DNA from: Clostridia bacterium
GTDB taxonomy: Bacteria; Bacillota; Clostridia; UMGS1883
Assembly: GCA_017414645.1 (NCBI GenBank)
Contig: JAFQLL010000027.1
Coordinates: 1-42,698 of the forward strand
Length of the DNA stretch: 42,698 nt
Direction of reading: 5' to 3'
Part shown: positions 5,427-26,288 of the stretch, piece after piece
Layout: every line of letters starts with the position of its first letter
Numbering within the stretch: the first letter of the stretch is position 1
Notes under the pieces: model-generated
What the model saw: only the letters and a program-made list of their open reading frames with translations
Told to the model about the DNA's origin: nothing
Database searches by the model: none
Translations under genes and position numbers: made by a program

Positions 5427-5440
5427 TTTATCTCCTCCAA

Positions 5441-5457
5441 TTTCTAAATTTTAGAAA
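5441..5457. promoter_or_regulatory. 17-bp perfect palindrome in the GH16 gene leader
   Basis: TTTCTAAA-T-TTTAGAAA, perfectly symmetric, lies between the promoter and the ribosome binding site of the GH16 gene. The position just after the transcription start suits a repressor operator; the regulator is unknown. Confidence 0.4.
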
Positions 5458-5470
5458 CCAATTCAGGATA

Positions 5471-5499
5471 ATTATATCACTATTTTTTTTCAATGTCTA
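5471..5499 (-). promoter_or_regulatory. Promoter of the GH16 gene
   Basis: TAGACA (5494-5499) and TATAAT (5471-5476) on the minus strand with a 17-base spacer, about 45 bases before the start codon. Confidence 0.7.
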
Positions 5500-5517
5500 T
5501 ATTTTTTTGAAAATTAA

Positions 5518-5552
5518 ACAAAAAAGAAGTGCCTAAATCACTTCTTTTTTGT
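5518..5552. terminator. Hairpin terminator after metF
   Basis: A perfect 14-bp stem (5518-5531 with 5539-5552, loop 5532-5538) has A-tracts on one side and T-tracts on the other, so it can act in both directions. It lies 7 bases after the metF stop and just before the GH16 promoter. Confidence 0.85.
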
Positions 5553-5559
5553 CTGTTTT

Positions 5560-6435: not shown

Positions 6436-6439
6436 GCAA

Positions 6440-8122: not shown

Positions 8123-8153
8123 ACTTTTCATCTCCGCTGTTTTAAGGTAATAA

Positions 8154-8175
8154 AGCCGAGGAAAACTCCTCGGCT
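8154..8175 (-). terminator. Terminator-like hairpin, left copy, in the GH2 leader
   Basis: AGCCGAGGA and TCCTCGGCT pair around a 4-base loop. On the minus strand it is followed by TTTATT, so it faces the GH2 gene, whose ribosome binding site begins about 20 bases further on. It would terminate transcripts coming from metY, or act as an attenuator. Confidence 0.55.
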
Positions 8176-8253
8176 GAGCGTGTCGAAAAAATCGACACGC
8201 GACAAAAAATCTTGCGGAGGACAATATTTTTTGTCAATGTTTTTATAGTGAAC

Positions 8254-8409
8254 AAAGTGCCAATTTCAGCGGTCAACTGTATCCGCTCTGTCGTCGCTAT
8301 CGCTCGCCAGTCACGGACAGTTTTCGCATACGAGCTATTCGCCTCGCTTGCGCTTCGGATAGCTCAGCATCGTACAAGGGGCTTGAGAGCCCCCTAAAAT
8401 TGGCACTTT
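8254..8409. repeat. Candidate MITE-like element bounded by a 13-bp inverted repeat
   Basis: AAAGTGCCAATTT at 8254-8266 is exactly mirrored at 8397-8409. The interior is rich in short hairpins and has no credible gene. Terminal repeats plus internal structure suggest a small non-autonomous element, though no target-site duplication is proven. Confidence 0.45.
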
Positions 8410-8507
8410 CGGAGGGGCAATGCGATAGCCCCTCCTATTTTTTTCAGGGAACCTTCTTCCCCGAACCCTTCGCGATTGTGCGAAAATTCAGGTTTATTGA
8501 CAGTATG

Positions 8508-8529
8508 AGCCGAGGAAAACTCCTCGGCT
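8508..8529 (+). terminator. Terminator-like hairpin, right copy
   Basis: This is the same 22-base palindrome as at 8154-8175, but here it is followed by TTTTATTTTT on the plus strand. The two copies therefore face outward from the block between them. It lies 7 bases past the metY stop, where it may also stabilise the metY mRNA end. Confidence 0.55.
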
Positions 8530-8536
8530 TTTATTT

Positions 8537-9811: not shown

Positions 9812-9842
9812 GGTCATTCTCCTTTGCCAAAGCGTTTTTTCT

Positions 9843-9871
9843 ATTATACGCCTATTTTTTTTCGTAGTCAA
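9843..9871 (-). promoter_or_regulatory. Promoter of metY
   Basis: TTGACT (9866-9871) and TATAAT (9843-9848) with exactly 17 bases between. Transcription should begin near 9836, about 25 bases before the start codon. Confidence 0.85.
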
Positions 9872-9936
9872 TTATTTTATAACAATTCTTCACGTCTCAG
9901 GAATGGTGGTTTTCCCGGTTGCGCCGCACGTAAGCT

Positions 9937-11982: not shown

Positions 11983-11984
11983 TT

Positions 11985-14222
11985 TTATTCCTCCATGCTG
12001 TAGCCTTCGGGAGCACATATCTCTACTTTCATACCCTCAGGTGTTTTTACATCAATTGAAATCTTTTTGCCCTCTGCCTTCCAGCTCACTTCAACATGTC
12101 CCATCGAGCAATTAAAGCTGCCGCGAGCATAGGTTGTGTTTTCGGGAACATAGGGCTTTATGGTAATGCTATCTATTTTTTCATACCTTACGCCAAGAAC
12201 GCCCTGTATAAGCCACTCCTTAACGTGGCCCATCATGGCGTGGTTACGGCTTCTGACCATACCCCACCACAATTCTTCATAGTTCCAGTATTCGGGAAGG
12301 CAAGTCAGATTGTTATCTGCAAAGTATCGATAGCTTGGTCTTGTGGGGTTTGTGACCATTTTATAAACCAAGTCGTCGTAACCGTATTTGTTAAGAGTTG
12401 CAAAAACCTGCTTTAACCCAACTTCACCGCTCGTAAGGTGATAGCCTGCTTTTTTTACTGCTTCAACTAAGCCTTCTACTGCACTTTCTTCGTTCTCTTT
12501 AAGGCAAATTCCCGAAAAAAGCACACAGCCGTAGCTTGCCTGGCTACCATTGCCGTAGGTCCTTGTTTCCTTATTGTAGCACTCTTCATTTTCGTGAAAG
12601 GCTTGTTTCACTTTTTCTGCTTTTTTCCGATATTCGCTGCCATCCTTTCCCAATATGTCCAGAATTTGCGAAAATGTATTGAGCAAAAGATAATAGGCAC
12701 AGTTTTCAACAAGCTTTGCGGGGGTTTTTTCATTTATCTGCCCCCAGTCGCCCATTTGTGAATAGCCATCCAGAAGGCCATCTTTTTCGTGCATGCTTAA
12801 GTGCTTTATGTAATATTCACCCTTTAAAGCGTTATTCAAAACAGCCTTGTCGTTATAAAACCTGTAATGGTACCAGGGTGTCATTATGCACGCACCGCCC
12901 CAGTTAACGTCGCGGTGAAGCCCCATTATGCGATGAAACTCAGGCACAATTGCAGGCATGTAGCCGATTACCTCGCCATCGCCCATAGCTTCAAGCTGTA
13001 TGCAATCTGCCATATCCAGAGTTATTTTTTCTATCCAGCTTTTAATGTCCCTTGTGTATGCCATACTTCTGAACATTAAGTGGCTTGTTTCCAGCCAGCC
13101 CAGTTTTTCAATCTGCGGGCAGTCCGTAAAAGCGAAAAACATGTTGCTTTCAATGCTTCTGTCGGTCATATCGCTTATTTTTTGCAAGAGGGTGTTATCT
13201 GTTTCAAAAAAGCCTGTTTTTTTGTTATCTGCCATAAGTCGGATATAGGTAAAGGTGTTTTCCTTTGGTTCATAAGGCATGCCTTGAACCTCTAAATACC
13301 TGAAACCGTGATAGCAAAAGATTGGGTGCCACACCTCTTTACCTGTACCTGCTATTATGTAGCTGTCACTTATTTCGCACTTTTTTGTTTCGCTCCAGCT
13401 CTGGGTGGAGCTTCTCTGGTCAGCAAAGCCTGTATCACTAAGCTCCTCACAAGGGAGCATTTTTATTTTAACACCTCGCATAGCCGGGGTTGTGTCAAGC
13501 TCTATAAGAAGCACCCCTGCACCGTTTTTGCCAAAGTCAACAATGTAGCTGTCGCCCACTTTTGTAATGCTTACAGCCTTGAAACGCTCAATTTCCCGTA
13601 CAGGGTTGAAAAACCGCTTTTCAAAAGTTGCCTTAGGTGCAGTCATAATCTTTGCATTTTGGTCAAAGCTTATAGCTTTTGTTGCATCGTAGTCCTCGCC
13701 ACCATACCAGTTCTGGAAGGTTATGTTGCTTTTTGCAACAAGCCAGCTTTCGTCTGTTACGCATATTGCCTTTCCGTCTGCCTCAATCACGCAGATGGCT
13801 TTTTTTACTCCGTTAATGTCCTTCGCGAAAACCTCGCCGTCGTTTTTCTGATATCTGTGAGGCTCAATTAATTCCCCGGCCTTTTCCATGGTAGGGTTAA
13901 TTTTAAAGTTTGTGTATTGTCCGTTGCCAAGAAGGATTTGTATTTCATTTTCGCCTATCGTTACCATATTGGTTATGTCAAGTTTTTCGTAATACACCCT
14001 TTTGCCGTAATTGCTTTCTCCCGGGGCAAAATAAATGTCTGAAACCTTTTTTTGATTAATGCTTGCTTCAAAAAGCCCAAGACCCGTTATATAAAGGGCA
14101 ACCTCTTTAAAGCTCTTATTTATGTAAAATTTGCGCATGAGAACAGGGGCGCTGTTATGCTCTGCACACTTGTCGCCCTCACCTATCCATTTTGCGTTGT
14201 ATAAATCAAAAACACTGTCCAT
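11985..14222 (-). CDS. Glycoside hydrolase family 78 alpha-L-rhamnosidase-like protein
   Basis: A 745-residue cytoplasmic protein with the GH78 layout: N-terminal beta domains (about 1-325), an (alpha/alpha)6 barrel (about 330-670) and a C-terminal beta domain. The acid motif reads D367-C-P-Q-I-E-K-L-G-W, with E372 in the general-acid position. Two positions differ from the common D-C-P-Q-R-E-R-x-G-W-T-G-D motif: isoleucine replaces the arginine before the glutamate, and threonine (T379) stands where the last aspartate usually is. The candidate base is in Y-W-N-Y-E649-E650. This looks like a GH78 subclade with altered specificity rather than a broken gene, since the frame is intact. Start 14222 is preferred because GGTGAT ends 4 bases before it and the promoter's -10 box almost touches the upstream ATG at 14234. 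It forms an operon with the GH35 gene. Confidence 0.83.
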   Translation of the reverse strand: MDSVFDLYNAKWIGEGDKCAEHNSAPVLMRKFYINKSFKEVALYITGLGLFEASINQKKVSDIYFAPGESNYGKRVYYEKLDITNMVTIGENEIQILLGNGQYTNFKINPTMEKAGELIEPHRYQKNDGEVFAKDINGVKKAICVIEADGKAICVTDESWLVAKSNITFQNWYGGEDYDATKAISFDQNAKIMTAPKATFEKRFFNPVREIERFKAVSITKVGDSYIVDFGKNGAGVLLIELDTTPAMRGVKIKMLPCEELSDTGFADQRSSTQSWSETKKCEISDSYIIAGTGKEVWHPIFCYHGFRYLEVQGMPYEPKENTFTYIRLMADNKKTGFFETDNTLLQKISDMTDRSIESNMFFAFTDCPQIEKLGWLETSHLMFRSMAYTRDIKSWIEKITLDMADCIQLEAMGDGEVIGYMPAIVPEFHRIMGLHRDVNWGGACIMTPWYHYRFYNDKAVLNNALKGEYYIKHLSMHEKDGLLDGYSQMGDWGQINEKTPAKLVENCAYYLLLNTFSQILDILGKDGSEYRKKAEKVKQAFHENEECYNKETRTYGNGSQASYGCVLFSGICLKENEESAVEGLVEAVKKAGYHLTSGEVGLKQVFATLNKYGYDDLVYKMVTNPTRPSYRYFADNNLTCLPEYWNYEELWWGMVRSRNHAMMGHVKEWLIQGVLGVRYEKIDSITIKPYVPENTTYARGSFNCSMGHVEVSWKAEGKKISIDVKTPEGMKVEICAPEGYSMEE

Positions 14223-14226
14223 ATAT

Positions 14227-14268
14227 ATCACCATTTTAAATTATACCCCCATTCATTTTTTGTGTCAA
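14227..14268 (-). promoter_or_regulatory. Promoter and ribosome binding site of the GH78-GH35 operon
   Basis: TTGACA (14263-14268) and TATAAT (14240-14245) are both perfect boxes with a 17-base spacer. Transcription should start near 14233, directly at the GGTGAT ribosome binding site (14227-14232), giving a leader of only about 11 bases. Confidence 0.85.
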
Positions 14269-14269
14269 T

Positions 14270-14283
14270 AATTGTAAACAATT
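14270..14283. promoter_or_regulatory. Candidate operator between divergent promoters
   Basis: AATTGT-AA-ACAATT, a perfect palindrome, lies between the -35 box of the GH78 operon and that of the secreted propeller gene. It is well placed for one regulator to control both. I saw no regulator gene nearby. Confidence 0.4.
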
Positions 14284-14294
14284 TCCCATATTTA

Positions 14295-14323
14295 TTGACT
14301 TTAAGTTTTAGAGGATATACAAT
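14295..14323 (+). promoter_or_regulatory. Promoter of the secreted propeller gene
   Basis: TTGACT (14295-14300) and TACAAT (14318-14323) with a 17-base spacer, 25 bases before the start codon. Confidence 0.75.
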
Positions 14324-14348
14324 ATTTTCAGATACAGGAGGGATATAT

Positions 14349-17300
14349 ATGAAAAAGGTTTTAGCATTAATGGTTTTAGCATGCTTGCTTTTGTCGCTCT
14401 GCACGCCACTTACGGCCTTTGCCCAGACGATAAATGCATCGATTTTAGTGTCGGAAGACTCTTACACAGAAGAGTCGGACCCTGACAGTGCAGTAGGCAA
14501 GGCAAATGCCTCGCTTATTACCACATCAAACACAGGGGGCGCTAAACCTGCTGCGGCAAACAGAAATGTTTATTTAAAGTACGACTTACGCTCTTATGAC
14601 TTATCAAATCTTACAAGTGCAAAAATCAAGCTCCATATAAATACTGTTTCCAACAAGGCAGACAGAACAATTACGGTTTACTCTGTAGCAAACGACTGGA
14701 GCGAAAACGCCATTACCTGGAACACTGCTCCCACACCCACAGAGGCTGCCATTACAACCTATCTCCAGAAATATGTAAAAAACGCAAACAAAGATATATG
14801 GATAACAATCGACGTTACAGCCTTTGTTAAAGAGCATTATTCCGACGAGGTAATTTCCTTCATGCTTTCTTCCGACACAGGCGCAACAAAGATCGACTCT
14901 AAGGAAACCTTATACAGCCCATCATTGGAGGTAAGCTTCACTTCTGATAAAAGCGTGGGCAATGTAAGGGTAAAGTACCTCAGCGAAATGGACACACCCA
15001 TTTCCCGTGAGGTTTTAATGCCTTCAATTTCAGAAGGCAGTTATAGCTATCCTCACGACATTCCCTCAATTTTAAGCTATCAGGGTACAGACTATGTTTA
15101 CAACAAGGAAAAGTCCGTAACAAGCATTAATGTTGCAGCAGGCGGTACAAACGAAATTATTCTTTACTATGACGACCCCATGATAACACCCGAGGGCGTG
15201 TATAAGAAAATTGTGCCCGTAAGCGAGGATACTTTTGCAAAGCAAACCGATGCAAATGCCGTTTACAACACAGAAGAGCCTGACACGCTGGAGGTTACAA
15301 TGAACTTAGGTGCATCGGGTGCAGCAGCACGCCGCGATGGCTTTATAAAGTTCGATGTTTCAGATATTCCTTACAGCTTTATTACCTCAGCACGCCTTAC
15401 AGGCTACATTACAAGTGCCACTAATCCCGGTGAGCGAGTTCTTAAAATTTACCCAACAGAAACAAACACCTGGCAGGAGAGCACATTAACCTGGAATAAT
15501 GCTCCCTCCTATACAGGTGAGCCTATTGCCGAGTTTATTGTGCAATCGGGCACAACAGGCGCATGGGTGAGCGTGGATATCACAGAATACTGCAGACAGA
15601 ACGAAGGACCCTTCTCCTTCAGAATGATTGCCGATACAGCCGCAACAACCTTTGCAACAAAGGAGGGCGACAGCTTTAACTGTATGGTGCTCGATCTTCG
15701 TTATACAACCGACGAAAACTATCGCCTTTCAACTGTTACTGTTAAAAAGGTAGACACATTGGGCAACAGCATTGCTCCCGACGAAACACTTTCCGACTGT
15801 CTGGTAGGCGACTATTACTACATGGGCACCCCCGAACAAATTATTGACAACGACCTTGGCGTTTTCGTATTTGACAAAGCCTTGTCAACTCTGCACATAA
15901 ACGTAACAGAAGATGGTAATAACGTTATTGAGCTGGTGTATCACAAGCAGGGCGAAAACATGGGCACAAGCACTTTGGCAGAAGAAGGCGGCTGGAACTG
16001 GTGCTTAGACCCCAGAGCAATACGCGATGTGAACGAAAATACAGGCAGTGACAAAACCTATGTTTCCTATATTGACAATAAGGGCAATATAAAATTAACG
16101 CAGTACGACAACATTACAAATACCTACAAGCAGGTATTTGTTCGTGAGGGCTTCGTGGCAGACGACCACTCGAACCCTGCCTTATTCATTCTTCCCGACC
16201 ACCGTATTATGGTTATTTACTCTCAGCACACCGAGGAGGAATGCTTCTACTACCGCATATCCCAAAAGCCTGACGATGCAACATCTTTTGGCGAAGAAAA
16301 GGTTGTGTCCACCCAAGGATATGGCACTGTTACATACCCTACGCCCTTCTACATGAACGGCACTCCCGATTCCTTTTATCTTTTCTGGCGAGGTATAAGC
16401 TGGCACCCCACAGTTGCACGCTTCTCCCTGCCCGATGAAAATGGCGACATTTCATTTGAAACAGAGCCTATGATGCTTATAGATGCAAGAAGCTCTGCTG
16501 CTGAGGAAAACAAGCGCCCCTATGCAAAGTATACCTCGGATGGTGAAAGTAAAATTTACATCTCCTATACCTACGCACATCCCGACACGATGGAGACAAA
16601 CACTCTCTATGCTTCATACATCGACATTAACACCATGTGGCTTCACAATCTCAATGGCGAAAAGCTTGCCGATATAGCCGCCGGTCCCTTTAAAATAACA
16701 AATGCGGAAACAGACAGCGCAATTGTAGTTAACCGCACCGAGCTGGTCCGCAACTGGAACTGGGAAATTGAGCTTACAGAAGACAACCGCCCGGTCATTC
16801 TCTACGTTGGTATCAGTCAGGATAAAAAAAGCCACCTTTACTACCATGCAGAATGGATGGGCGACGATTGGCGCATAACCTATATAGATGATGGCGGAAA
16901 GTGGTTCCACGATAACACAAAGGGAGCTGAAAAGTGCTATTCGGGTGGTTTATGTATTGATCATGGTAACACAAACATTGTTTATGCTTCCGTTCCCGTT
17001 GAAGGCATTTACGGCACCTTCTACGAAATTTATAAATATGTTTTATCTGATGGCGAAGTAATAAGCAAAACCGCTGTTACCCAGAATTCTTCCGAAAACA
17101 ACTTCCGCCCCTATGTGGTGGAAAATTCAAAGCCTACCGATAAGGTTTATCTTGTATGGCTTTCGGGTGAATACTACTATTGGGCAAACAAAAAAGACTT
17201 CTTGCCCAGTAATGGTGCAGTTAAGTATGGCTACACAAACCGTGTGAATACCTGGAGCAATCTTACAGGCTACGACCCCACAAGCGACTTTGAGTCCATC

Positions 17301-18494
17301 GATTTAAAGAACACTGACCGCGTTGTAACAGACCTTGCCTTTGTACAAAGAAGCGTTAACGGTGCCCGCGTTACATGGCAGAGCGACACTCCCTCTGTTA
17401 TATCCCACACAGGCGTGCTTACAAGACCTGATAAAGAAACCATCGTAACAGTTACTGCTACCTTGGAATTTTCGGGGCAGAGCTTTACAAAGGATTACAG
17501 CCTTACGGTTTACCCCAAGGAATCCATTAACGAAAACCTTGTTTTCCGCTACGACTTTTCCTTGGAAGATGTGTACACCTCAGATGGACAGCAAATGGTA
17601 AAAGATAAGTCAGAAAACGGCAACGATGCGCGGCTTATGGGCAGCATTGCCAAGGTTGAAAACGGCATTTTAGACCTTTCGGGCAACGGTATGAAAAACG
17701 ACAGAGTGCTTGATACAAACAGCTATCTCATTGCCCCCGACGGCATTCTCAACACCTTACGAAGCTACACCTTTATAGGTAAAGTAAAGCTTGCCGACAC
17801 CTCCTACGACTACCGCCTTTATGATTTCGGTTCAGGTGGCAACAATTCACTTTTAGGCAGGCTCAGTCAGAGCCTTTCTGCAGGCATAAAGCTTGACGGC
17901 GGCACAACACAATTTGTAACGGCAGAGGAAAAGCTTACAAAAGACACCTGGTATACCATAGCTTATTCCTACGATGCTTCAACCCACACTACAAGTATCT
18001 ATATTAATGGTAGTCTTGCAGCAAGTGGCAAAACCATCGAAACCGAAGCAATTGAGCTTTTAGGCAATAACACACGTAACTACATAGGCAGAACTCAGTG
18101 GTGGGATACGCACTACGACTACACCGCCCGAGAAAACCCCGACCTGAAGGGCTGTATAGATTATGTAGCGCTTTATAACACTGCTCTTTCGGCTACTGAA
18201 ATTGACCGTCTTTCGAACCCGTCCTCGTCAATTGATAAGGTTGATGTTTCGGGCAACACAATAAATGTAACAATTTCAAACGATACTGCCTTCGAGGAAG
18301 ATTATTTTATAATCGCATCTTATCAATCAGAAACAAGCTTTGTTGTAAGAACAACAACGTGTTCACTTATGCCCGGCAAATCAGACACTTTGAGCATCAG
18401 CTTTGATTCTGCGGTTACAAAGGAAGGCTTAAAGGTTTTTCTCTGGAACAAAAAGAGTAATTTAATGCCCCTTTCAGTCGCTTATAAGGGATAA
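14349..18494 (+). CDS. Secreted BNR_4-type beta-propeller protein with CBM96, Ig-like and LamG modules
   Basis: A 1381-residue exported protein; the start has AGGAGG 7 bases upstream and follows the promoter. Residues 1-25 are a signal peptide. Two CBM96/DNRLRE modules lie at about 27-200 and 287-455, each followed by a MucBP-like strand region. The central part (about 545-975) looks like a BNR_4 seven-bladed propeller: G-G-W-N-W (547-551), D605-D-H607-S-N-P, S-Q-H627 and R-P-Y-A-K-Y. This fold is shared by PL24/PL25 ulvan lyases and the GH145/PL27 enzymes acting next to rhamnose-glucuronate, so a lyase or glycosidase role is likely but unproven. An atrophied Ig-like domain (about 977-1058), a LamG/concanavalin-like domain (1060-1295) and a C-terminal module ending in K-V-F-L-W follow. 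Its divergence from a rhamnosidase operon supports a rhamnose-bearing substrate. No sortase motif or membrane anchor is visible. Confidence 0.8.
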   Translation: MKKVLALMVLACLLLSLCTPLTAFAQTINASILVSEDSYTEESDPDSAVGKANASLITTSNTGGAKPAAANRNVYLKYDLRSYDLSNLTSAKIKLHINTVSNKADRTITVYSVANDWSENAITWNTAPTPTEAAITTYLQKYVKNANKDIWITIDVTAFVKEHYSDEVISFMLSSDTGATKIDSKETLYSPSLEVSFTSDKSVGNVRVKYLSEMDTPISREVLMPSISEGSYSYPHDIPSILSYQGTDYVYNKEKSVTSINVAAGGTNEIILYYDDPMITPEGVYKKIVPVSEDTFAKQTDANAVYNTEEPDTLEVTMNLGASGAAARRDGFIKFDVSDIPYSFITSARLTGYITSATNPGERVLKIYPTETNTWQESTLTWNNAPSYTGEPIAEFIVQSGTTGAWVSVDITEYCRQNEGPFSFRMIADTAATTFATKEGDSFNCMVLDLRYTTDENYRLSTVTVKKVDTLGNSIAPDETLSDCLVGDYYYMGTPEQIIDNDLGVFVFDKALSTLHINVTEDGNNVIELVYHKQGENMGTSTLAEEGGWNWCLDPRAIRDVNENTGSDKTYVSYIDNKGNIKLTQYDNITNTYKQVFVREGFVADDHSNPALFILPDHRIMVIYSQHTEEECFYYRISQKPDDATSFGEEKVVSTQGYGTVTYPTPFYMNGTPDSFYLFWRGISWHPTVARFSLPDENGDISFETEPMMLIDARSSAAEENKRPYAKYTSDGESKIYISYTYAHPDTMETNTLYASYIDINTMWLHNLNGEKLADIAAGPFKITNAETDSAIVVNRTELVRNWNWEIELTEDNRPVILYVGISQDKKSHLYYHAEWMGDDWRITYIDDGGKWFHDNTKGAEKCYSGGLCIDHGNTNIVYASVPVEGIYGTFYEIYKYVLSDGEVISKTAVTQNSSENNFRPYVVENSKPTDKVYLVWLSGEYYYWANKKDFLPSNGAVKYGYTNRVNTWSNLTGYDPTSDFESIDLKNTDRVVTDLAFVQRSVNGARVTWQSDTPSVISHTGVLTRPDKETIVTVTATLEFSGQSFTKDYSLTVYPKESINENLVFRYDFSLEDVYTSDGQQMVKDKSENGNDARLMGSIAKVENGILDLSGNGMKNDRVLDTNSYLIAPDGILNTLRSYTFIGKVKLADTSYDYRLYDFGSGGNNSLLGRLSQSLSAGIKLDGGTTQFVTAEEKLTKDTWYTIAYSYDASTHTTSIYINGSLAASGKTIETEAIELLGNNTRNYIGRTQWWDTHYDYTARENPDLKGCIDYVALYNTALSATEIDRLSNPSSSIDKVDVSGNTINVTISNDTAFEEDYFIIASYQSETSFVVRTTTCSLMPGKSDTLSISFDSAVTKEGLKVFLWNKKSNLMPLSVAYKG

Positions 18495-18548: not shown

Positions 18549-19835
18549 TTATCTTACGAAAAGAATAATGAACTGGCTTATAAGAACAACCGCAATCAAA
18601 GCCACAGGATAGGTTGCAGCATAGGAGGATGCAACGTCATCTGTTTCGGCAACATTTATAAGTGTGCCGAGAGCAGGTGTGCTTGTCATACCGCCTGTAA
18701 GAGAACCAAGGTTGTTGAGAAGGCAAAGCTTTAAGATATACTTTGCAAAGAAGAAGCCAGCGATCATAGGAAGCACTGTCATAATTACGCCGTAGATGAA
18801 GTAAACGGGCTGTACAATCTGCAAGAAGCCGTTACCGCCAGCTATACCTGCACCAACAAGGAAAAGGATAAGACCAAGCTCCTTGAAAATTGCAAGTGTT
18901 TTGCCCTCGGGCATAACGCTTACCTTGCCTATTTTGCCGAAGTGACCGAAAATGAGACCTGTAAGAAGGCAGCCACCTGTTGTTGTGAGAGAGAAGCATG
19001 TGCCGCCAAAGCCTGCTGCACTCATGGGAATTTTGATGTTGCCAATAATTGTACCTATAATAGCTGCTAAAGCAAAGGCTGCAAAGCCAAGATGATCAAA
19101 ATGAATTAAGTTCTGCACGGGCTTCTTTTCTGTTTCCTCTTCGCCTGCTACAAGAAGCTTTCTTTCTTCAGCCATATTTGCACGCATAAGCTTGGGCACA
19201 ATCTGTACGAAAAGCACAACGCCGATAACGCCGAATATGTAGCTTATTGCATGACCTGTTGTTACCAGATCTTCCAGATGATCAGCCATAGCTGTATCTG
19301 TTGCGATGGAAGCCGCTGTCTGCTTTGCTGCAGAGAACGCAGGTGTAGATGTTAAAGAGCCTGAAAGGAGACCGATTACCATACATGTGAGCTCGCTGCC
19401 TGTAAGACCACCGATGTTGTTACCGATAAAGATACAAAGCAATGCAGAGAGACCACCTGCAATTATGATAACAAGACCCATCATAACGTAGCTCTTGAAG
19501 TTTTTCTTGAGGTTGCCGAAAAACTTAGGACCGGCAATGAAGCCAACACTTGTAACAAAAAGAATAAGACCTAAATTTTCAACTGTCTTAAGAAGTGTTT
19601 TTGCAATTGATTCGCTTCCGAAAACTGTTGTAAGCAAGGGGAAGCATGCACAACCAAAAACAAGTGCCATGATAAATACGCCCGCATCGCCCAAAGAAAC
19701 GCCCTTGATTGTAATACGTCCGAGCATAAAGCCCACAGCAATAACAGCAAATATGGAAAACATTAAAAAGCCAATGCTGTTAACGGAGAACAAACCGCTA
19801 AAAAGCTTTACGCCGCTTTCTGTAATAGAAACCAT
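18549..19835 (-). CDS. AspT/YidE/YbjL-family membrane antiporter
   Basis: A 428-residue integral membrane protein with about ten or more hydrophobic segments. Two copies of the Asp-Al_Ex duplication domain are recognisable by the paired motifs G-S-L-T-S-T-P-A and G-G-M-T-S-T-P-A-L-G. AspT itself exchanges aspartate for alanine; related proteins move other acids, so the substrate is open. The usual two soluble TrkA-C (RCK) domains between the halves are absent; only a short charged linker rich in Glu and Lys is present, a reduced architecture compared with YidE and YbjL. The start is uncertain: ATG 19835 (GGAG 3 bases, AAAGG 11 bases upstream) or ATG 19844. Longer forms reaching 19979 are excluded because the promoter lies at 19905-19933. 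Confidence 0.85.
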   Translation of the reverse strand: MVSITESGVKLFSGLFSVNSIGFLMFSIFAVIAVGFMLGRITIKGVSLGDAGVFIMALVFGCACFPLLTTVFGSESIAKTLLKTVENLGLILFVTSVGFIAGPKFFGNLKKNFKSYVMMGLVIIIAGGLSALLCIFIGNNIGGLTGSELTCMVIGLLSGSLTSTPAFSAAKQTAASIATDTAMADHLEDLVTTGHAISYIFGVIGVVLFVQIVPKLMRANMAEERKLLVAGEEETEKKPVQNLIHFDHLGFAAFALAAIIGTIIGNIKIPMSAAGFGGTCFSLTTTGGCLLTGLIFGHFGKIGKVSVMPEGKTLAIFKELGLILFLVGAGIAGGNGFLQIVQPVYFIYGVIMTVLPMIAGFFFAKYILKLCLLNNLGSLTGGMTSTPALGTLINVAETDDVASSYAATYPVALIAVVLISQFIILFVR

Positions 19836-19904
19836 AATCTCCATAACCTTTCTGCTCACATAATATTTTTCATCTGCCGTGAGCTGACAGTTTAACCACA
19901 GATT

Positions 19905-19933
19905 ATTATAAAATAATTGCCTTACTTTGTCAA
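19905..19933 (-). promoter_or_regulatory. Promoter of the AspT-like transporter
   Basis: TTGACA (19928-19933) and TATAAT (19905-19910), both perfect, with a 17-base spacer. Transcription should start near 19898. Confidence 0.87.
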
Positions 19934-19982
19934 TCCAAATCGGGCGTTCTTTGCCGCATCTTTTTTGTGCACATTGCAAAAC

Positions 19983-20011
19983 AAAACGGGGAGCAAAATG
20001 CTCCCCGTTTT
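19983..20011 (-). terminator. Terminator of the protease operon
   Basis: A perfect 13-bp stem around an AAA loop with an ACGGGGAGC arm lies just past the stop at 20016. The minus strand continues with TTTT-G-TTTT. Confidence 0.8.
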
Positions 20012-20015
20012 TATT

Positions 20016-21917
20016 TTACTTTAATTCAAATGTTGCCATATGCTCCATTACATCAGCTGCTGTCTGAGAATTAGCTCTTTCCTGGCTTTCAGCAAGTGTG
20101 AACACGTAAATATCACCATTCATAAGAATTATATAATAGGTGCTGTACATACCTACGTTCAGCTCCTCGCTTTCCTGATAAACCTGGAATGTATAGTAGC
20201 GCCTTGTACCGATGTCTACCTGTTCAACCTTCTTTACAATCTTGCCGTCGCCCTTAGCATCTTTGGAAAATTCGCCTACAAGTTCCTTCATGTCAGACTT
20301 CTTAATTTCGCCGGCGTCGGCAATGCTGAGCTGAAGTGCAGCACCTGTACGCTTGTTTGACCATACCGCACCGGCTGAAGATGGCTTTACATACTCGTCC
20401 CACCAGCTTGTAAGCTGAATAGTCCAGTCTGAGCAAGAAGATACCTTGCTTGTTTTTTCGATGGAATTTCTGAGGAAAACGCCTGTCTTTTCGCTGTCAA
20501 TCTCTTCTATTTTCAAAGATTCCATAACAAGCTGGTAAACTTCCTTCTTGTTTCTGGGCACGGTAACCGTTACGTTATATACATAGTCGCCCTTTTCAAA
20601 GTAAATGTCATAAAGCTCGTAATCTCCGCTGAAAAGACCGTCTGTTGTTACCCAGTAATAACATGCGTTTTCGCCGCATTCTGTTGACTTATAGGGTGTA
20701 AGGTTTGATACAGAGCAAACCTCAGCATTAAAGTACTTTTTGTGGTGGTCACAGTCATCCTGTGCAAGAGTCTTTGCTGTTACTTCTTCTGTTTTGGAAT
20801 AGAGACCAACAGTTATTTCTGTAACATCGTCGTCTTTATTGCCTGCAAACCAGATAAGGTTAAGCTGGTCAGGGTCAACGTCAACACATGTTGCAGGAAC
20901 CTTAAAGCTTACTCCCAGGTCTTCGTTATTAACAAGTCTGTAACCATCTTCGCCAACATTGGACAAATCGTGAGTCTGCGCCTTTTCTTCGTCATTAGCT
21001 GCAAATTCAAGCTTGAAGGATTCTAAAATAGCTGTTGCAGATGCAATCATTTCGCTGTCCTTTTCGCTAGTAAATGCAATCTGATAGCAATAGTCATTCT
21101 TATATATGCCGTAAATGTCCACATAGTCTTCCTTATCTCGGGCAATTATGCGGAAGCACTCGTTACCGAAGCCATCCTTAGACTTTTCAGCCTTTGAGAA
21201 TGTAAAGCCGGAAAAGCCTGTCTTAAGCTCGTTGAACCTGTCTTCTATAGCAGAGCCTTCATAATCTGAAACATCGAAAATATTAATCGACAGCTTTGCA
21301 TCGTTTTCGTCTTCAAAAATAGTGTAGCAACCATCGGAAAGTCTGTCGGTCATCATCATGGCAGAAGGCCTCATCATTGACCAGTTCCAGTAGCTGTCAC
21401 CGATTTTGGGAAGGTCTGTAGACTGAGAAATCTTGTCGCTTTCTGTAGCAGCTTCCTTAACAACGGTAATTGCCGCTGTAGCATTGTCATAGCCTACAGT
21501 TGCACCAAAGGTTTCAGAAATGAAACGGAGAGGAACCATTGTTACACCGTTGGGGCTGAGCACCGGTGCTTCGGGCAAGGTTTCTGTATGGTCATTTACA
21601 GTTGCACTTACATTACCTATCTGTAATTTAATGTTAACGTCGGGATATTCAAGAATGATTTCCTTTGTTTCGTTAATCCAGGTTACCTTTGCGCCAAAGG
21701 CTTCGGTAATAACTCTTAAAGGAACTAAGGTTGTACCTGCACCTACAACGTAGGGTGTTTCCACAGTTGTAGGGTTGCCGTTAATCATGAGAGTGGAGTC
21801 GCCCACTTTAAAGCTTATTTCAACCTTTTCTGGAACGGCTGCCTCGTCGGCATTTGCAAAAGTTGCAAAGCTCATAAGCATTGCAATGGATAAAATCAAG
21901 CTGATAATTTTTTTCAT
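20016..21917 (-). CDS. Secreted stalk-domain protein, equivalent to the C-terminal half of the upstream fusion
   Basis: A 633-residue protein with a signal peptide (1-23) and AAGGAG 6 bases before the start. Residues about 31-155 hold a copper-amine-oxidase N1 'stalk' domain with two repeats, each carrying a T-x-V-P-L-R-x-I-(T/S)-E-x-F-G-A motif. The remaining 470 residues contain a W-N-W-S-M-M motif near 177-182 and beta-rich segments in tandem that I cannot assign to a known family. It aligns along its length with residues 383-1036 of the protein encoded at 23062-26172, including D-L-S-N-V-x-E-D-G-Y-R. It is the last gene of a three-gene operon, 12 bases after the protease gene. The cell-envelope location follows from the signal peptide; no anchor motif is seen. 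Function unknown; probably a partner of the secreted protease. Confidence 0.75.
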   Translation of the reverse strand: MKKIISLILSIAMLMSFATFANADEAAVPEKVEISFKVGDSTLMINGNPTTVETPYVVGAGTTLVPLRVITEAFGAKVTWINETKEIILEYPDVNIKLQIGNVSATVNDHTETLPEAPVLSPNGVTMVPLRFISETFGATVGYDNATAAITVVKEAATESDKISQSTDLPKIGDSYWNWSMMRPSAMMMTDRLSDGCYTIFEDENDAKLSINIFDVSDYEGSAIEDRFNELKTGFSGFTFSKAEKSKDGFGNECFRIIARDKEDYVDIYGIYKNDYCYQIAFTSEKDSEMIASATAILESFKLEFAANDEEKAQTHDLSNVGEDGYRLVNNEDLGVSFKVPATCVDVDPDQLNLIWFAGNKDDDVTEITVGLYSKTEEVTAKTLAQDDCDHHKKYFNAEVCSVSNLTPYKSTECGENACYYWVTTDGLFSGDYELYDIYFEKGDYVYNVTVTVPRNKKEVYQLVMESLKIEEIDSEKTGVFLRNSIEKTSKVSSCSDWTIQLTSWWDEYVKPSSAGAVWSNKRTGAALQLSIADAGEIKKSDMKELVGEFSKDAKGDGKIVKKVEQVDIGTRRYYTFQVYQESEELNVGMYSTYYIILMNGDIYVFTLAESQERANSQTAADVMEHMATFELK

Positions 21918-21929
21918 AGTCTTCTCCTT

Positions 21930-23048
21930 TTAATTTGTTGTTATTTCTGCTACACCTGCTATTCCCAGACGGGTATAGTTAAGTGTTATGCTCTGTCCGT
22001 TGAAGCTTTTCTTTATTGCTTCGTTATAATCGGCAATGGAGTGCACCTCGTAACCATTTACGTGGGTTATAACATCGCCGGGCAAAATGCTTTCCGTTTT
22101 ACTTACCGAAACGGTCAATCCCTTCTTTGTGGGTACACCGATTTTTGCCTCCCAGGATTCTGTGAGGGTTATGCCCATATCGGGGCGTAAAACCTTGCCG
22201 TACTTTTCGAAGCTTGTAAGCACATAGTTCACTGTATCCACGGGAATTGAAAAGCTCATACCTTCAACGCCCACACCGGAATATTTTATAGAATTTATGC
22301 CCACAAGCTCGCCCTTCATGTTAACAAGAGGGCCACCGCTGTTGCCGCCGTTGATAGCAACGTCAGACTGTGTGAAAAGGTAATGCTGACCAATGTTCAC
22401 GCCAACGCCCGAAACAATGCCCTTCGATGCCGAATTAATATGGTTCACCGAAAGGGGTGTTCCCATAGCTATAACGGTCTGACCTACGATAAGGCTGTTT
22501 TCCGGTGCGAAGGTAATGGGCTTTAAGCCAAGCTTATTAATTTTCACAACTGCAAGGTCGCTTATTTCGTCAATATATTGCACGCTTCCGCTGTAGGAGT
22601 CGCCGTTTGCAAATATAACGGTTAAATTCTGTATATCCTTTACCACATGTGCATTTGTAAGTATTGTGCCGTTACTTTTTATAATTACACCTGTACCATG
22701 TGCGTAAAGCTCGTTATAGTTCTGCGCATCCACAGAAATTGCATCGGACTTGTAGGTTCCCACAATTGCCACAACGCTCTGCCCTACAGACTTAACGGTA
22801 TTTATAACCGCTGTTTCTTCCTTTTGTTCAACATAGGCACTGCGGGTGTCGTTGTCCCATTCTACTTCTGCGCCCATAGATTCGCTCACCGCTCTTAAGG
22901 GAACATAAACGCGGTCATTTATTATGTAGGCATCTGTATCAAGCTGCTGTCCGTTAACGTATACCTTTGCCGCCTGCTCTGCCGCAGCAGAGCAGCCTAT
23001 AACACAAACAGCAGCCACACAAATTGCCGTAAGCCTTTTAAGTTTCAT
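21930..23048 (-). CDS. Secreted HtrA-like serine protease (S1C) with PDZ, probable lipoprotein
   Basis: 372 residues; start 23048 has AAGGTG 5 bases upstream, and longer frames overlap the preceding gene. The N-terminus ends in V-I-G-C19, a lipobox-like cleavage site, so the protein is probably tethered to the outside of the membrane. A half stalk domain (about 26-75, with V-P-L-R-A-V-S-E-S-M-G-A) precedes the trypsin-like domain with the complete triad H134 (T-N-A-H), D164 (S-D-L-A) and S237 (G-N-S-G-G-P). A PDZ domain covers about 285-370. The layout matches HtrA/DegP proteases that degrade misfolded envelope proteins, but the transmembrane anchor of typical Gram-positive HtrA is replaced. 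It aligns without gaps with residues 81-370 of the upstream fused protein, and the triad numbering is identical. Confidence 0.88.
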   Translation of the reverse strand: MKLKRLTAICVAAVCVIGCSAAAEQAAKVYVNGQQLDTDAYIINDRVYVPLRAVSESMGAEVEWDNDTRSAYVEQKEETAVINTVKSVGQSVVAIVGTYKSDAISVDAQNYNELYAHGTGVIIKSNGTILTNAHVVKDIQNLTVIFANGDSYSGSVQYIDEISDLAVVKINKLGLKPITFAPENSLIVGQTVIAMGTPLSVNHINSASKGIVSGVGVNIGQHYLFTQSDVAINGGNSGGPLVNMKGELVGINSIKYSGVGVEGMSFSIPVDTVNYVLTSFEKYGKVLRPDMGITLTESWEAKIGVPTKKGLTVSVSKTESILPGDVITHVNGYEVHSIADYNEAIKKSFNGQSITLNYTRLGIAGVAEITTN

Positions 23049-23061
23049 GCTTTCACCTTCT

Positions 23062-26000
23062 CTATTGCTTTGCTTCCACCTTAAATGTGCCCAGTGCCGC
23101 TTCCACATCGAGCTTTGTCTGTGCATTTGCAAACTGCTCAACCTCAGTAAGCTCGAAGGAGTAGAACTTGCCACCCTTCTTCATTACGTAAGCTGAGTAA
23201 TACTTGGTCACAGCCTCGCCATAGTAATCTTCTGTAGTATACTTAATGGAGAATGTGTAGAAGGAATTTTCGCCTAAATTCACCTGTGTTACGCTCTTGA
23301 GAACCTTCAGTTCTTTATCCTTGTAGGTTGTCTGAGCATCCTTAAGCGCTGCTTCCACTGCACTCTTCGCACTTGAATAGCCTGCTTCCTTGGCATCTGT
23401 AATGTCAAGATAAAGCCTTGCAGTAGTGTAGGTGTTGGCAAAGGATGCATAGTCCTCATAAGCGTAGGACTCGTTCCATGCGCTGTTAAGAGTGAAGGAC
23501 CAGTCGCCTTCAGAGAACTTCTTTTCGGCAAAGTTTCTTTCGGGGCGTACCAGAACGCCCATGTCATCTTCATCGAGCTCTTTTACTTCGAGTGTTTCTA
23601 TTACCTTGTTAAAGAACTTGCCGCCGTCCTTTTCAGATACAACTGTCATTTCGTATACATATTCACCCTTTTCAAAGAAGAGCATATATGTAACAAGACC
23701 TTCAATCTTTTCTTCCTCTGTTTCAGTTTCTTCAGAAATAGTCTCTTCTTCAGTAGCTTCTTCAGTAGCTTCTTCGGTAGCTTCTTCAGTAGCAACCTCT
23801 GTTACTTCCTCAACGATTTCTTCTTCACCATTTGTAATCTTGCACATGTATACGTTTTCGGCAAAATCAGCATCCACCTGAGTTATTTCGGAAATAGTAG
23901 CATATTCGCTGTTGTAGTATTTCTTTGCAAATTCAACCTCGGAATTGATAAGGCTTTCCGCATTCACGCTTTCGCTCTTCGAATATACAGCAAGGCTGAG
24001 ACTTTCGTCGTTTTCACCAACATAGGAAAGTGTATTAACAGAGTAGTAGCCTGTATAGCCCTCGGAAAAGTCTGCAGGCACCTTGCAGGAAACCTTCAGT
24101 TCTTCATCTTCCATAGGCCTGTAGCCGTCTTCGTCTACGTTTGACAAATCATAGGTCTGTTCTTTTTCCTCGTCATTTGCCGCAAACTCAACCTTAAAGG
24201 ATTCAATAAGGTTTGAATAGGTCTTAATAGGTGCCGTTTCAATATCGCCGTATACACCCACCATAAACACAGTCTTATCTCTTACAACACAGTATGTATC
24301 GTAATACGCATACTTACTTCTGCCTGTCATTCTGAAGCAGGGGTTACCAAGGCTGTCTGTAGATTTTTCGTTTTTGGAAAGAGTGAGGTCCTCGAAATTA
24401 TAGTACATTTCTTCATCGTAAATTTCTTCAAAAATTTCTTCCGAAGTGTAATCTGCATATTCATCGTCATTTTCAAGGTCTACAACAGCAATCGCAATAT
24501 CTCCGCTTTCATCGTAGAACTCTGTCTGTGTGCCATCAAGTGTTCTGTCGCTCATCATCATAGATGTGGGGGTGAGCATGGACCAGTTCCAATAGCTGTC
24601 GCCCACTCTGGGAAGGTCTGTAGAGAACTTGATTGTTCCGCTTTCTTCTTCCGCTTCTCTTACAACTGTGATACGACCTGTTTCGCCGTCGTAATCAACA
24701 GTAGCACCGAAGGTTTCTGCAATAAAGCGCAGGGGCACCATTGTTACACCCTCACCAACGATTTCAGGTGCAACAGCAAGCTCAACTTCTTCGCCATTAA
24801 CCTTGGCTATCGTGTTACCTGCCTGTAAAACAATAGTATTTTCGGGATATGTTAAAGTAATTGTATTGTCTTCAGCCTGCCATTCTACGGTAGCACCGAA
24901 GGCCTCTGTAATAACACGGAGCGGAACTAATGTTGTGCCTGCACCTGCGATGTAGGGTGTTTCAACTTCCACTCTGAATCCGTTAATCATAAGCGTGCTG
25001 TTGCCTACAGTAAAGCTTATTTCCACCCTTGCATCTGTGTCCTTTTCTAAGTCTGCCTCGGCTTCAATCATAACTGCGTTGGAAACGCCGCCGCGTGTGT
25101 ATGTAAATTCAACTGCCTTGCCATCAAAGCTCTTTTTAAGCGCTTCATTATAATCTGCAATGGAGTGAACCTCATAGCCGTTTACATGAGTTATCATGTC
25201 ACCTGCCATAAGAAGCTCGTTATCGGAGGATGTAACAGTAAGACCCTTTGTTGTAGGAACGCCTATTTTGCTTTCCCAGGACTCGGTCATGTTAACACCT
25301 GTATCAGGACGGATAACTCTGCCGTACTGTCTGAAGGAATCGAGCACGTAGTTTATTGTGTCAACAGGAATAGAGAAGCTCATGCCCTCAATTTCGCTGC
25401 CCACATATTTTATAGAGTTAATACCGACAAGTTCGCCCTTCATGTTAACAAGGGGACCACCGCTGTTACCGCCGTTTATGGCAACGTCAGACTGTGTGAA
25501 AAGATAGTGCTGACCTATATTTACGCCTATACCCGACACAATACCCTTTGTTGCAGAGTTTATAAGGTTAACCGACAAAGGTGTACCGATGGCTACAACG
25601 CTTTCGCCAACCTTAAGGCTGCCTTCCTGGGCAAACTTAATGGGCTTAAGGTTTTGTCTGTTTATCTTAACCAAAGCAAGGTCGCTTATTTCGTCAACGT
25701 ATAAAACAGTGCCCGGGAAGGATGCACCATCACCGAAAACAACCGTTAAATTCTGAATGTCCTTTACAACGTGTGCATTAGTAATTATAACACCTTCACT
25801 GTCAATAACAGCGCCTGCACCGTGAGCATAAAGCTCGTTATAGTCCTGCGCGTCGGAGGAAAGGGATGAATCCTTATAGTTACCTACAATGGCAACAACG
25901 CTTTCACTCACGCTTTCAATCATTTCAACAACCTTTTTATCGCTGCTTATTTCAAGCCTTGCGCTCTGAGTTGCCTCGTCCCATGTAAGGTCTGCGCCAA

Positions 26001-26172
26001 TTTTCTGGGCAAGCTCCTCCAGGGATATGTAAACTCCGTTTTCTGTTGTAATTGTTTCGTTCTGCATACTGTCGCCGTTTACAATTACTTCAACGCCTGC
26101 AGCATAGGCACTAATTGCACCTGTTAAAGTAAAAAATGCTGTTGCTGCTGCGATAATTCTGTTAACCTTCAT
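23062..26172 (-). CDS. Secreted HtrA-like protease fused to a stalk domain and long C-terminal tail
   Basis: 1036 residues; start 26172 follows AAAGGTGAG, while the GTG at 26181 lies inside that site. Signal peptide 1-24, with no lipobox. In order: a half stalk domain (about 27-75), an S1C protease with triad H134/D164/S237, PDZ (about 285-370), a complete copper-amine-oxidase N1 stalk domain (383-505) and a long tail with W-N-W-S-M near 528-532. The tail carries a Glu/Thr-rich linker (about 783-826) with four tandem 4-residue repeats. The next two genes of the operon encode the same architecture as separate proteins. The fused form either arose by joining such genes with loss of the second signal peptide, or is ancestral to them. 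The role is probably envelope proteolysis or sensing; the tail has no family I recognise. Confidence 0.87.
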   Translation of the reverse strand: MKVNRIIAAATAFFTLTGAISAYAAGVEVIVNGDSMQNETITTENGVYISLEELAQKIGADLTWDEATQSARLEISSDKKVVEMIESVSESVVAIVGNYKDSSLSSDAQDYNELYAHGAGAVIDSEGVIITNAHVVKDIQNLTVVFGDGASFPGTVLYVDEISDLALVKINRQNLKPIKFAQEGSLKVGESVVAIGTPLSVNLINSATKGIVSGIGVNIGQHYLFTQSDVAINGGNSGGPLVNMKGELVGINSIKYVGSEIEGMSFSIPVDTINYVLDSFRQYGRVIRPDTGVNMTESWESKIGVPTTKGLTVTSSDNELLMAGDMITHVNGYEVHSIADYNEALKKSFDGKAVEFTYTRGGVSNAVMIEAEADLEKDTDARVEISFTVGNSTLMINGFRVEVETPYIAGAGTTLVPLRVITEAFGATVEWQAEDNTITLTYPENTIVLQAGNTIAKVNGEEVELAVAPEIVGEGVTMVPLRFIAETFGATVDYDGETGRITVVREAEEESGTIKFSTDLPRVGDSYWNWSMLTPTSMMMSDRTLDGTQTEFYDESGDIAIAVVDLENDDEYADYTSEEIFEEIYDEEMYYNFEDLTLSKNEKSTDSLGNPCFRMTGRSKYAYYDTYCVVRDKTVFMVGVYGDIETAPIKTYSNLIESFKVEFAANDEEKEQTYDLSNVDEDGYRPMEDEELKVSCKVPADFSEGYTGYYSVNTLSYVGENDESLSLAVYSKSESVNAESLINSEVEFAKKYYNSEYATISEITQVDADFAENVYMCKITNGEEEIVEEVTEVATEEATEEATEEATEEETISEETETEEEKIEGLVTYMLFFEKGEYVYEMTVVSEKDGGKFFNKVIETLEVKELDEDDMGVLVRPERNFAEKKFSEGDWSFTLNSAWNESYAYEDYASFANTYTTARLYLDITDAKEAGYSSAKSAVEAALKDAQTTYKDKELKVLKSVTQVNLGENSFYTFSIKYTTEDYYGEAVTKYYSAYVMKKGGKFYSFELTEVEQFANAQTKLDVEAALGTFKVEAKQ
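23745..23792 (-). repeat. Four tandem 12-base repeats encoding a Thr-Glu-Glu-Ala linker
   Basis: Four consecutive copies of CTTCTTCAGTAG (plus-strand reading; one copy with a single change) encode repeated T-E-E-A. Such a tract can expand or contract by slippage in multiples of four residues without breaking the frame. Confidence 0.85.
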
Positions 26173-26203: not shown

Positions 26204-26232
26204 ATAATACACCTTTTTCATTTTTCAGTCAA
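26204..26232 (-). promoter_or_regulatory. Promoter of the three-gene protease operon
   Basis: TTGACT (26227-26232) and TATTAT (26204-26209) with a 17-base spacer, about 30 bases before the first start codon. No other good promoter is seen before the second or third gene; the gaps are only 13 and 12 bases. Confidence 0.8.
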
Positions 26233-26253: not shown

Positions 26254-26288
26254 AAAAACGTGCCGAATAACATGTTCGGCACGTTTTT
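26254..26288. terminator. Terminator of the SLC13-like permease gene
   Basis: A perfect 14-bp stem (26254-26267 with 26275-26288) carries ACGTGCCGAA in its arm and T-tracts on both strands. It follows the permease stop by 2 bases. Confidence 0.88.

What the first reader, a model, noticed from the sequence alone, without database searches (positions are those of the whole stretch)
20016..26172. One operon carries a protease fusion and, next to it, the same protein split into two genes
The first gene encodes signal peptide, half stalk domain, HtrA-like protease, PDZ, full stalk domain and long tail in 1036 residues. The next two genes encode the protease part (372 residues) and the stalk-plus-tail part (633 residues) separately, each with its own export signal. 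The protease parts align without gaps, with identical triad numbering H134/D164/S237, and the tails share W-N-W-S-M and D-L-S-N-V motifs. This is a tandem duplication with fission or fusion. It implies that the stalk-tail protein works physically with the protease: one copy is covalently linked, the other free and with a probable lipid anchor on the protease. I know of no described system with this arrangement.
Basis: partly seen in the sequence, partly recalled or inferred. Interest (0 to 1): 0.75.

Follow-up and report, generated by a model that had tools for sequence, protein, structure and literature searches.

The report
Surface protease with variable partner protein
Some Clostridia and related bacteria carry an exported protease gene next to a gene for a partner protein made of a stalk and three photosystem-protein-like domains; this genome holds both the usual two-gene form and a copy merged into one gene, which suggests that the two proteins work together, and in two groups of species the partner's outer domains differ strikingly between close relatives.

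Summary
23062-26172(-) encodes 1036 aa; 21930-23048(-) and 20016-21917(-) encode its protease half (62% identity, no gaps) and stalk-tail half (39%). A second species of the genus has the same triple, so assembly error is unlikely. The split form is ancestral and is a conserved operon that I found undescribed in the papers searched: of 47 unfused proteases collected, 43 have the tail gene directly 3' (median gap 15 nt), one directly 5', one more 3' by a second search, two are cut by contig ends. All 10 loci fetched outside the class (of 13 genomes found) show it too. Trees place the fused copies inside the window's genus; one other fusion, in another family, has lost both stalk modules. The 'long tail' is three homologous domains, PsbP/DcrB-like by D2 and D3. 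New: in two genera of different families the tail falls from 91-96% identity in the stalk to 32-56% in the PsbP-like domains while the protease stays at 96-97%; the fused copy does not. Best reading: a secreted HtrA-type protease with a dedicated, partly exchangeable recognition/anchoring partner. The lipid anchor is not conserved in the genus.

The parts
23062..26172 (-). fused gene, 1036 aa: signal peptide, half stalk, HtrA-like protease, PDZ, full stalk, three PsbP/DcrB-like domains
   Evidence: orthologue in G002 (L039_7) 86% identical over 1043 columns
21930..23048 (-). split protease, 372 aa: signal peptide (lipobox VIGC), half stalk, protease, PDZ
20016..21917 (-). split tail protein, 633 aa: signal peptide, stalk, D1, D2, D3
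22791..22961 (-). half stalk of the split protease (aa 30-86)
   Evidence: PF07833 positions 1-58 of 108; not found in 22 other HtrA-type proteases, one of which (L018) may be a remote module member
22296..22697 (-). Trypsin_2 domain of the split protease (aa 118-251) with H134, D164, S237
21966..22106 (-). PDZ of the split protease (aa 315-361)
21465..21785 (-). stalk (CuAO_N1) of the split tail (aa 45-151); 89-92% identical among the four split tails of the genus
20994..21440 (-). D1 of the split tail (aa 160-308), first repeat; variable after its W-N-W-S-M...DG start
20493..20975 (-). D2 of the split tail (aa 315-475), PsbP_2/DcrB-like
20019..20474 (-). D3 of the split tail (aa 482-633), PsbP-like, most variable
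25420..25821 (-). Trypsin_2 domain of the fusion (aa 118-251)
24667..24987 (-). stalk of the fusion (aa 396-502)
23068..24639 (-). D1-D3 of the fusion (aa 512-1035), with an acidic Thr/Glu-rich insert in D2 (about aa 783-821)
26204..26232 (-). promoter-like site before the fusion (10 of 12 matches)
   Evidence: consensus match only, 21 found in the region vs 16.8 expected from shuffles
26254..26288 (.). stem of 16 pairs between the upstream transporter gene and the fusion
   Evidence: listed as terminator-like on the + strand
19983..20011 (.). stem of 13 pairs just after the split tail
   Evidence: listed as terminator-like on the + strand; the palindrome reads nearly the same on the - strand, but it was not listed there (T-run rule not met)

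Best explanation
The locus is a three-gene unit derived from an old two-gene module: an exported HtrA-type serine protease and a dedicated exported partner (stalk domain plus three PsbP/DcrB-like domains). Shown: the module keeps its gene order in the Clostridia and other classes sampled; in the window's genus a tandem copy became one polypeptide. At the junction the fusion is a net 78 nt shorter than the split pair, as expected if an in-frame deletion removed stop, ribosome site and second signal peptide. Inferred: the two proteins assemble outside the membrane; the protease core (probably a trimer like other HtrAs) does the cutting, the stalks hold the parts together or to the envelope, and the PsbP-like arms recognise the target or ligand. 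Inferred: with one copy covalently linked and conserved, the free tail keeps being exchanged or diversified, giving nearly the same protease different recognition arms in different species.
For: Adjacency: 43 of 47 unfused proteases have the tail gene directly 3' on the same strand (gap -41 to 149 nt, median 15, 41 of 43 at most 60), L091 has it directly 5', L089's tail is seen, L117 and L121 run off contigs. All 10 loci fetched from 13 genomes outside the class are paired too. Fusions: window and G002, and separately L100_6 of G128 (814 aa), which lies elsewhere in both trees. Half stalk: a model from 22 near rows finds it at E <= 5e-4 in 22 of 25 untruncated remote module proteases (L106 0.19; L113 and L122 none), and it is not found in 22 other HtrA-type proteases. 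Tail homology holds for a model trained without the remote loci (17 of 18 at E <= 7e-11; L122 at 0.003; best of 90 shuffled decoys 0.36). Domain repeats: hhalign probability 98.0, 96.9, 98.5. Variation: G000 vs G002 split pair, identity half stalk 96, protease 96, PDZ 96, stalk 91, D1 47, D2 56, D3 32%; same species pair, fused copy 77, 96, 96, 95, 87, 80, 84%. G097 vs G070: protease 97, stalk 96, D1 52, D2 (cut by the contig end) 51%, with the nucleotide break within about 120 nt.
Against: No binding, structure or expression data; structure prediction was busy and then switched off. Half stalk and full stalk do not strictly go together: L113, L140 and L141 have a tail stalk without a detected half stalk, and L142-L145 have a weak half-stalk match without a tail stalk, so stalk-to-stalk docking is doubtful. 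L083 has two tails after one protease and L042 a second shorter one, so 1:1 stoichiometry is not given. Of 13 pairs with protease identity of 95% or more (not independent of each other), 2 show the tail collapse and 11 do not. The G128 fusion rests on one contig of one genome. Operon conservation and fusion are also expected for an enzyme and its client.
Confidence: 0.5

Rival explanations
1. The tail protein is the protease's dedicated substrate or client: the HtrA matures, releases or quality-controls a surface protein encoded next to it.
For: HtrA-type proteases of cyanobacteria and plants degrade another extrinsic photosystem protein, PsbO (passages of PMC4877387); adjacency fits enzyme and client; the tail evolves faster than the protease.
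Against: Stable fusion to the protease, kept in two species and arisen again in G128, is odd for a substrate to be destroyed; the half stalk ties these proteases, and not 22 others, to the module.
Confidence: 0.2
2. The tail is an inhibitor or regulator that holds the protease inactive until a ligand binds the PsbP-like domains.
For: Covalent and free forms would both serve; three ligand-like domains; acidic insert in the fusion's D2. All indirect.
Against: No match to an inhibitor family among the Pfam families listed; nothing direct.
Confidence: 0.12
3. The two genes are only co-expressed envelope genes with separate functions; the fusions are neutral accidents.
For: Both look exported; they may share one transcription unit (consensus matches only).
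Against: Adjacency survives across classes and, in L091, in reversed order, and fusion happened twice.
Confidence: 0.1
4. The tail collapse is fast drift or a chance import of a diverged allele, without selection for variety. (This concerns the variation only and can be true together with any of the others.)
For: D3 is the fastest part of the tail in many pairs; dS is saturated in much of D1-D3, so no dN/dS above 1 can be claimed; in G002 the next gene, a permease, is also diverged (61%), so there the change may not stop at the tail.
Against: The border is sharp; against G003 the identity is 67-88% nt in the stalk part and 78-95% after the tail's stop but mostly 33-68% in D1-D3; it recurs in another family, while the fused copy in the same two species does not show it.
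Confidence: 0.4

Closest known systems
HtrA/DegP/DegQ family (peptidase family S1C; TIGR02037)
   Same: chymotrypsin-type domain with H, D, S triad, following PDZ, exported; the profile matches DegP-like structures (best E 8e-76)
   Different: scores 194 and 210 bits against TIGR02037's cut-off of 416 and is below cut-off for all NCBIfam models listed; N-terminal half stalk; one PDZ; a partner protein in the operon
PsbP/DcrB (Mog1p/PsbP) domain proteins
   Same: D3 matches PnsL1 (9grx, E 1.6e-6) and PsbP; D2 matches PsbP_2 in 14 of 37 and a PsbP structure (2xb3, 8e-4), DcrB only weakly (0.17); L140's tail passes Pfam's PsbP_2 cut-off
   Different: three in tandem behind a stalk domain, paired with a protease, in bacteria not known to me as photosynthetic; D1 is linked only through D2 and D3
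Copper amine oxidase N-terminal ('stalk') domain proteins, PF07833
   Same: full domain in the tail, half in the protease
   Different: no amine oxidase domain; the window's genome has 33 further match rows to the fusion's stalk/tail part outside this locus, of which I looked at one neighbourhood (C5, L050)
DegS/AlgW and other regulated HtrAs
   Same: one protease domain plus one PDZ; idea of a protein or peptide partner that governs activity (recalled)
   Different: no sequence evidence here for a sigma-factor pathway; no partner of this kind is known to me there (recalled)

Membership tests
HtrA/DegP-type serine protease | catalytic triad H, D, S in Trypsin_2 domain | tested here: met
   H134, D164, S237 invariant in 37 of 37 aligned proteases; PF13365 E 1.5e-31 and 7e-30
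HtrA/DegP-type serine protease | C-terminal PDZ domain | tested here: met
   PF13180 31.7 and 30.3 bits, cut-off 27
HtrA/DegP-type serine protease | passes NCBI's TIGR02037 or an HtrA equivalog model | tested here: not met
   194.2 and 210.1 bits against 416.2; the listed equivalogs are far below cut-off: HtrA-like, not DegP/DegQ/DegS proper
HtrA/DegP-type serine protease | trimer or higher oligomer, peptide-activated | not testable with these tools
   needs protein
stalk domain PF07833 | Pfam gathering score | tested here: met
   136.5, 50.1 and 130.7 bits (tail, split protease, fusion), cut-off 24.2; the split protease holds only positions 1-58
PsbP/DcrB domains | sequence match of D3 and D2 | tested here: met
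   profile search of the PDB: PnsL1 1.6e-6 (D3), PsbP 2xb3 8e-4 (D2, 65 positions only); Pfam PsbP in 13 of 37 and PsbP_2 in 7 of 37 whole tails at E <= 1. The window's own tail alone gives no PsbP match at E <= 0.1
PsbP/DcrB domains | sequence match of D1 | tested here: inconclusive
   no PDB hit at E <= 10, PsbP_2 in 2 of 37 (best 0.01) and PsbP in 1 of 37 (0.016); hhalign to D2 98.0% and D3 96.9%
PsbP/DcrB domains | fold | not testable with these tools
   structure prediction switched off
lipoprotein (protease) | lipobox conserved | tested here: not met
   present in window and G002, absent in G001 and G003 of the genus; pattern hits in 3 of 50 rows plus the window by reading

The most novel reading that the evidence does not exclude
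A surface protease system with interchangeable recognition arms: a constant HtrA core and stalk, and a PsbP-triple cassette that is swapped by recombination at a fixed boundary just inside D1, in the manner of variable surface receptors or antigens; the fused copy is a 'locked' version with a fixed arm working beside the variable one.
Probability: 0.22. Interest if true: 0.78.

Novelty: new variant of a known kind. Interest (0 to 1): 0.52.

Why it matters
HtrA proteases are central to envelope quality control and secretion, but dedicated protein partners are little known in Gram-positive bacteria (recalled). A conserved partner gene, fused to the protease at least twice, gives a direct handle on what the stalk and PsbP-like domains of Bacillota do. 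The sharp change from conserved to variable sequence inside one gene predicts where specificity resides and can be tested by strain sequencing and by pull-downs.

Tried and rejected
Assembly error at 21918-21929: rejected, G002 has the same three genes and G001, G003, G032 and others have the same split arrangement. Fission of an ancestral fusion: rejected, the other loci collected are split (G128 apart) and both trees nest the fused copies in the genus. Fusions in G022, G001 and G005, suspected's open-frame figures: rejected, one search shows two ORFs in each.

Stalk-to-stalk docking as a firm mechanism: considered because L100 and L122 lack both stalks, dropped to a possibility after L113 and one search showed mixed cases; L113's half-stalk hit came from its being in the model and vanished. 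Control for the half stalk: the 22 other HtrA-type proteases mostly have only about 1.5 kb of flank held on each side; in the flanks of 21 of them, searched, one (L018, G050) has a weak tail match (E 9e-5), so it may be a remote module member without a half stalk. The 22nd is L043_9, which lies beside a module on the other strand.

Conflict of protease and tail trees over G001: the 47-row protease tree joins G001 to the fused copies (99/92), but holding the four split copies together is not rejected (p-AU 0.128), whereas joining G001 to the fused copies is rejected for the tail (p-AU 0.002). So one duplication in or at the base of the genus is enough. In the smaller protease tree the genus clade has only 82/85 support. 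The 298 nt held upstream of G001's protease match neither the fusion's end nor the transporter; G003 has the transporter directly upstream; so neither has a fused gene there.

Silent cassettes elsewhere in the window's genome (89% complete): the only further match to D1-D3 is a shorter paralogue on another contig, too distant to be a donor. More close pairs were sought in the genus and family of G070 (2 and 4 genomes) and the family of G218 (16 genomes) without success.

Rows dropped: L046, L118, L121 from the protease tree as too short; partial, fused and near-identical tails from A3 and A5 (37 kept). A scan of genome contigs by peptide patterns found only one relative, L038, apparently the same contig as G003's locus by length.

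Seen: passages only of PMC7716261, PMC7063780, PMC4877387 and PMC6527061, listings for the rest. The library is open-access only.
Full report
What is there. The three genes read as described. Pfam gives, for the split protease, half of the copper amine oxidase N-terminal domain (PF07833, 'stalk'), Trypsin_2 and PDZ_2; for the split tail, a full stalk and nothing else above cut-off; for the fusion, all of these. Fusion and split protease align over 364 residues without a gap (62%); fusion and split tail over 658 columns (39%). At the junction the split pair has TAA, 12 nt with AAGGAG, and a new signal peptide in the same frame; between the last aligned protease residue (364) and the first aligned tail residue (31) the split form has 129 nt and the fusion 51 nt, a net 78 nt in frame (my count). 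Stems at 26254-26288 and 19983-20011 and a promoter-like site at 26232-26204 lie at the two ends of the three genes (consensus matches only; terminator-like sites were 16 against 8.8 expected, promoter-like 21 against 16.8; both stems were listed for the + strand only).

The split form is a conserved operon. In 392 genomes of the class, 44 have a protease match at E <= 1e-45 and 38 a tail match at E <= 1e-25 (a few of the tail matches cover the stalk only, and G050's protease lacks the half stalk and has only a weak tail match beside it). I fetched 54 stretches and collected 50 protease rows, including the window's. Three are fused (window, G002, G128). Of the other 47, 43 are followed on the same strand by the tail gene, with a median gap of 15 nt; L091 has it on the 5' side; L089's tail appears although my ORF list masked it; L117 and L121 end at contig ends. 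The largest gaps are 135 nt (L118) and 149 nt (L105). A phylum sample of 398 genomes gave 15 with a match of the post-stalk profile at E <= 1e-20, 13 of them outside the class; I fetched 10 of these 13 and all have the protease directly upstream on the same strand. One named relative of the same genus is a goat-rectum metagenome genome (L038; apparently the same contig as G003's).

History. In the protease tree (47 rows) and the tail tree (49 rows) the fused copies of window and G002 lie inside the clade of the window's genus, with G005 of another genus of the family outside (97/93 and 99/96). The other rows, G128 apart, are split. So the duplication belongs to this genus or its base, and the fusion is derived. 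G003 and G001 of the genus have no fused gene directly upstream. The G128 fusion falls in a distant clade, keeps protease, PDZ and tail domains, and has lost both half and full stalk; it is the only fused one among 16 genomes of its genus searched, where G795 has the split pair, so it rests on one contig.

The tail. After the stalk there are three domains of about 150 residues that are homologous to each other (hhalign probability 98.0, 96.9 and 98.5 for D1-D2, D1-D3 and D2-D3; stalk against each under 0.2). A profile of 37 tails finds PnsL1 and PsbP of photosynthetic complexes in the PDB through D3 (E 1.6e-6 for PnsL1); D2 finds a PsbP structure at 8e-4 and DcrB at 0.17; D1 finds nothing. Pfam PsbP, PsbP_2 and DcrB match 13, 7 and 2 of 37 whole tails at E <= 1. 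PsbP/DcrB-like is therefore supported for D3 and D2 and inferred for D1. Homology of remote tails was checked with a model trained on 19 rows and tested on the other 18: 17 at E <= 7e-11, L122 at 0.003, best of 90 shuffled decoys 0.36.

The half stalk. A model built from 22 near rows finds it at E <= 5e-4 in 22 of 25 untruncated remote module proteases; L106 is weak (0.19), L113 and L122 have none. It is not found in 22 other HtrA-type proteases, of which L018 may itself be a remote member. Outside the class L136 has it, L140 and L141 do not, L137-L139 were not detected though I see a similar stretch by eye, and L142-L145 are weak. L142-L145 also lack a tail stalk. The link between half and full stalk is thus strong but not strict.

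Variation. Between the window's genome and G002 the split pair has 96% identity in half stalk, protease and PDZ and 91% in the stalk, then 47, 56 and 32% in D1, D2, D3; in the fused copies of the same two species D1-D3 keep 87, 80 and 84%. The four split tails of the genus have stalks of 89-92%; D1-D3 are 21-56% in the five comparisons that involve window or G002, and 70-74% between G001 and G003. Nucleotide identity against G003 falls inside D1 and is back at 78-95% after the tail's stop. The downstream permease is 93 and 97% identical to the window's in G001 and G003 but 61% in G002, so in G002 the change may extend further. The second case is G097 against G070: protease 97%, stalk 96%, D1 52%, D2 51%, with the break within about 120 nt after the W-S-M...DG start of D1 and one 60-nt patch at 80% further on; G097's contig ends in D2, so its D3 and far flank are unseen. 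Of 13 pairs with protease identity of 95% or more, these 2 collapse and 11 do not, the fused pair among them. Synonymous sites are saturated in much of D1-D3, so positive selection is not shown; exchange of a cassette is the simplest reading of the sharp border, not a proof. Extra tails also occur: L083 (two divergent tails), L090 (a 2222-bp unit repeated at 99.2%, with a protease remnant between), L042 (a shorter second tail).

How it may work. Both proteins look exported, are encoded together and are sometimes fused, so I take them as parts of one envelope or surface complex in which the HtrA core cuts and the PsbP-like arms recognise something that differs between species. Every step after 'encoded together and fused' is inference. 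The substrate rival is the strongest alternative. No paper on the operon was listed in ten searches of the held library (named in Tried and rejected), which holds open-access papers only.

Noticed in passing
window 2286-18494: The neighbourhood holds several polysaccharide enzymes: GH16 with F5/8C domains, GH35, alpha-L-rhamnosidase, and a 1381-aa protein with two CBM96, BNR_4 and laminin-G domains, pointing to plant polysaccharide breakdown.
   Followed up: no
window 18549-19979: Permease (Asp-Al_Ex) downstream is 93-97% identical in G001 and G003 but only 61% in G002, although the other G002 neighbours matched are 86-97% identical; a perfect TTGACA-17-TATAAT lies at its start.
   Followed up: partly
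L090 5364-10061: In G161 a 2222-bp unit with the tail gene is repeated in tandem at 99.2% identity, with a 141-aa ORF holding a protease/PDZ remnant between the copies.
   Followed up: partly
L050 5856-8727 and L049 3454-6351: A shorter stalk-plus-tail paralogue (472 aa) sits, in both window genome and G002, next to a gene of similar size; in the window genome that neighbour is an M56 (BlaR1-type) peptidase with WG repeats: again a tail-like protein beside a peptidase. The G002 neighbour was not scanned.
   Followed up: no
L018 (G050:C120): An HtrA-type protease without a half stalk has a weak tail-profile match (E 9e-5) in its flank; it may be a remote form of the module.
   Followed up: no
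L101, L106, L108, L110, L111, L113, L114: In seven loci the gene after the tail belongs to one family; the two members scanned are MgsA-type AAA+ ATPases, probably mere synteny.
   Followed up: partly
G000 whole genome: 33 further match rows to the stalk/tail part of the fusion in one 2.1-Mb genome, seven of them on contig C49.
   Followed up: no
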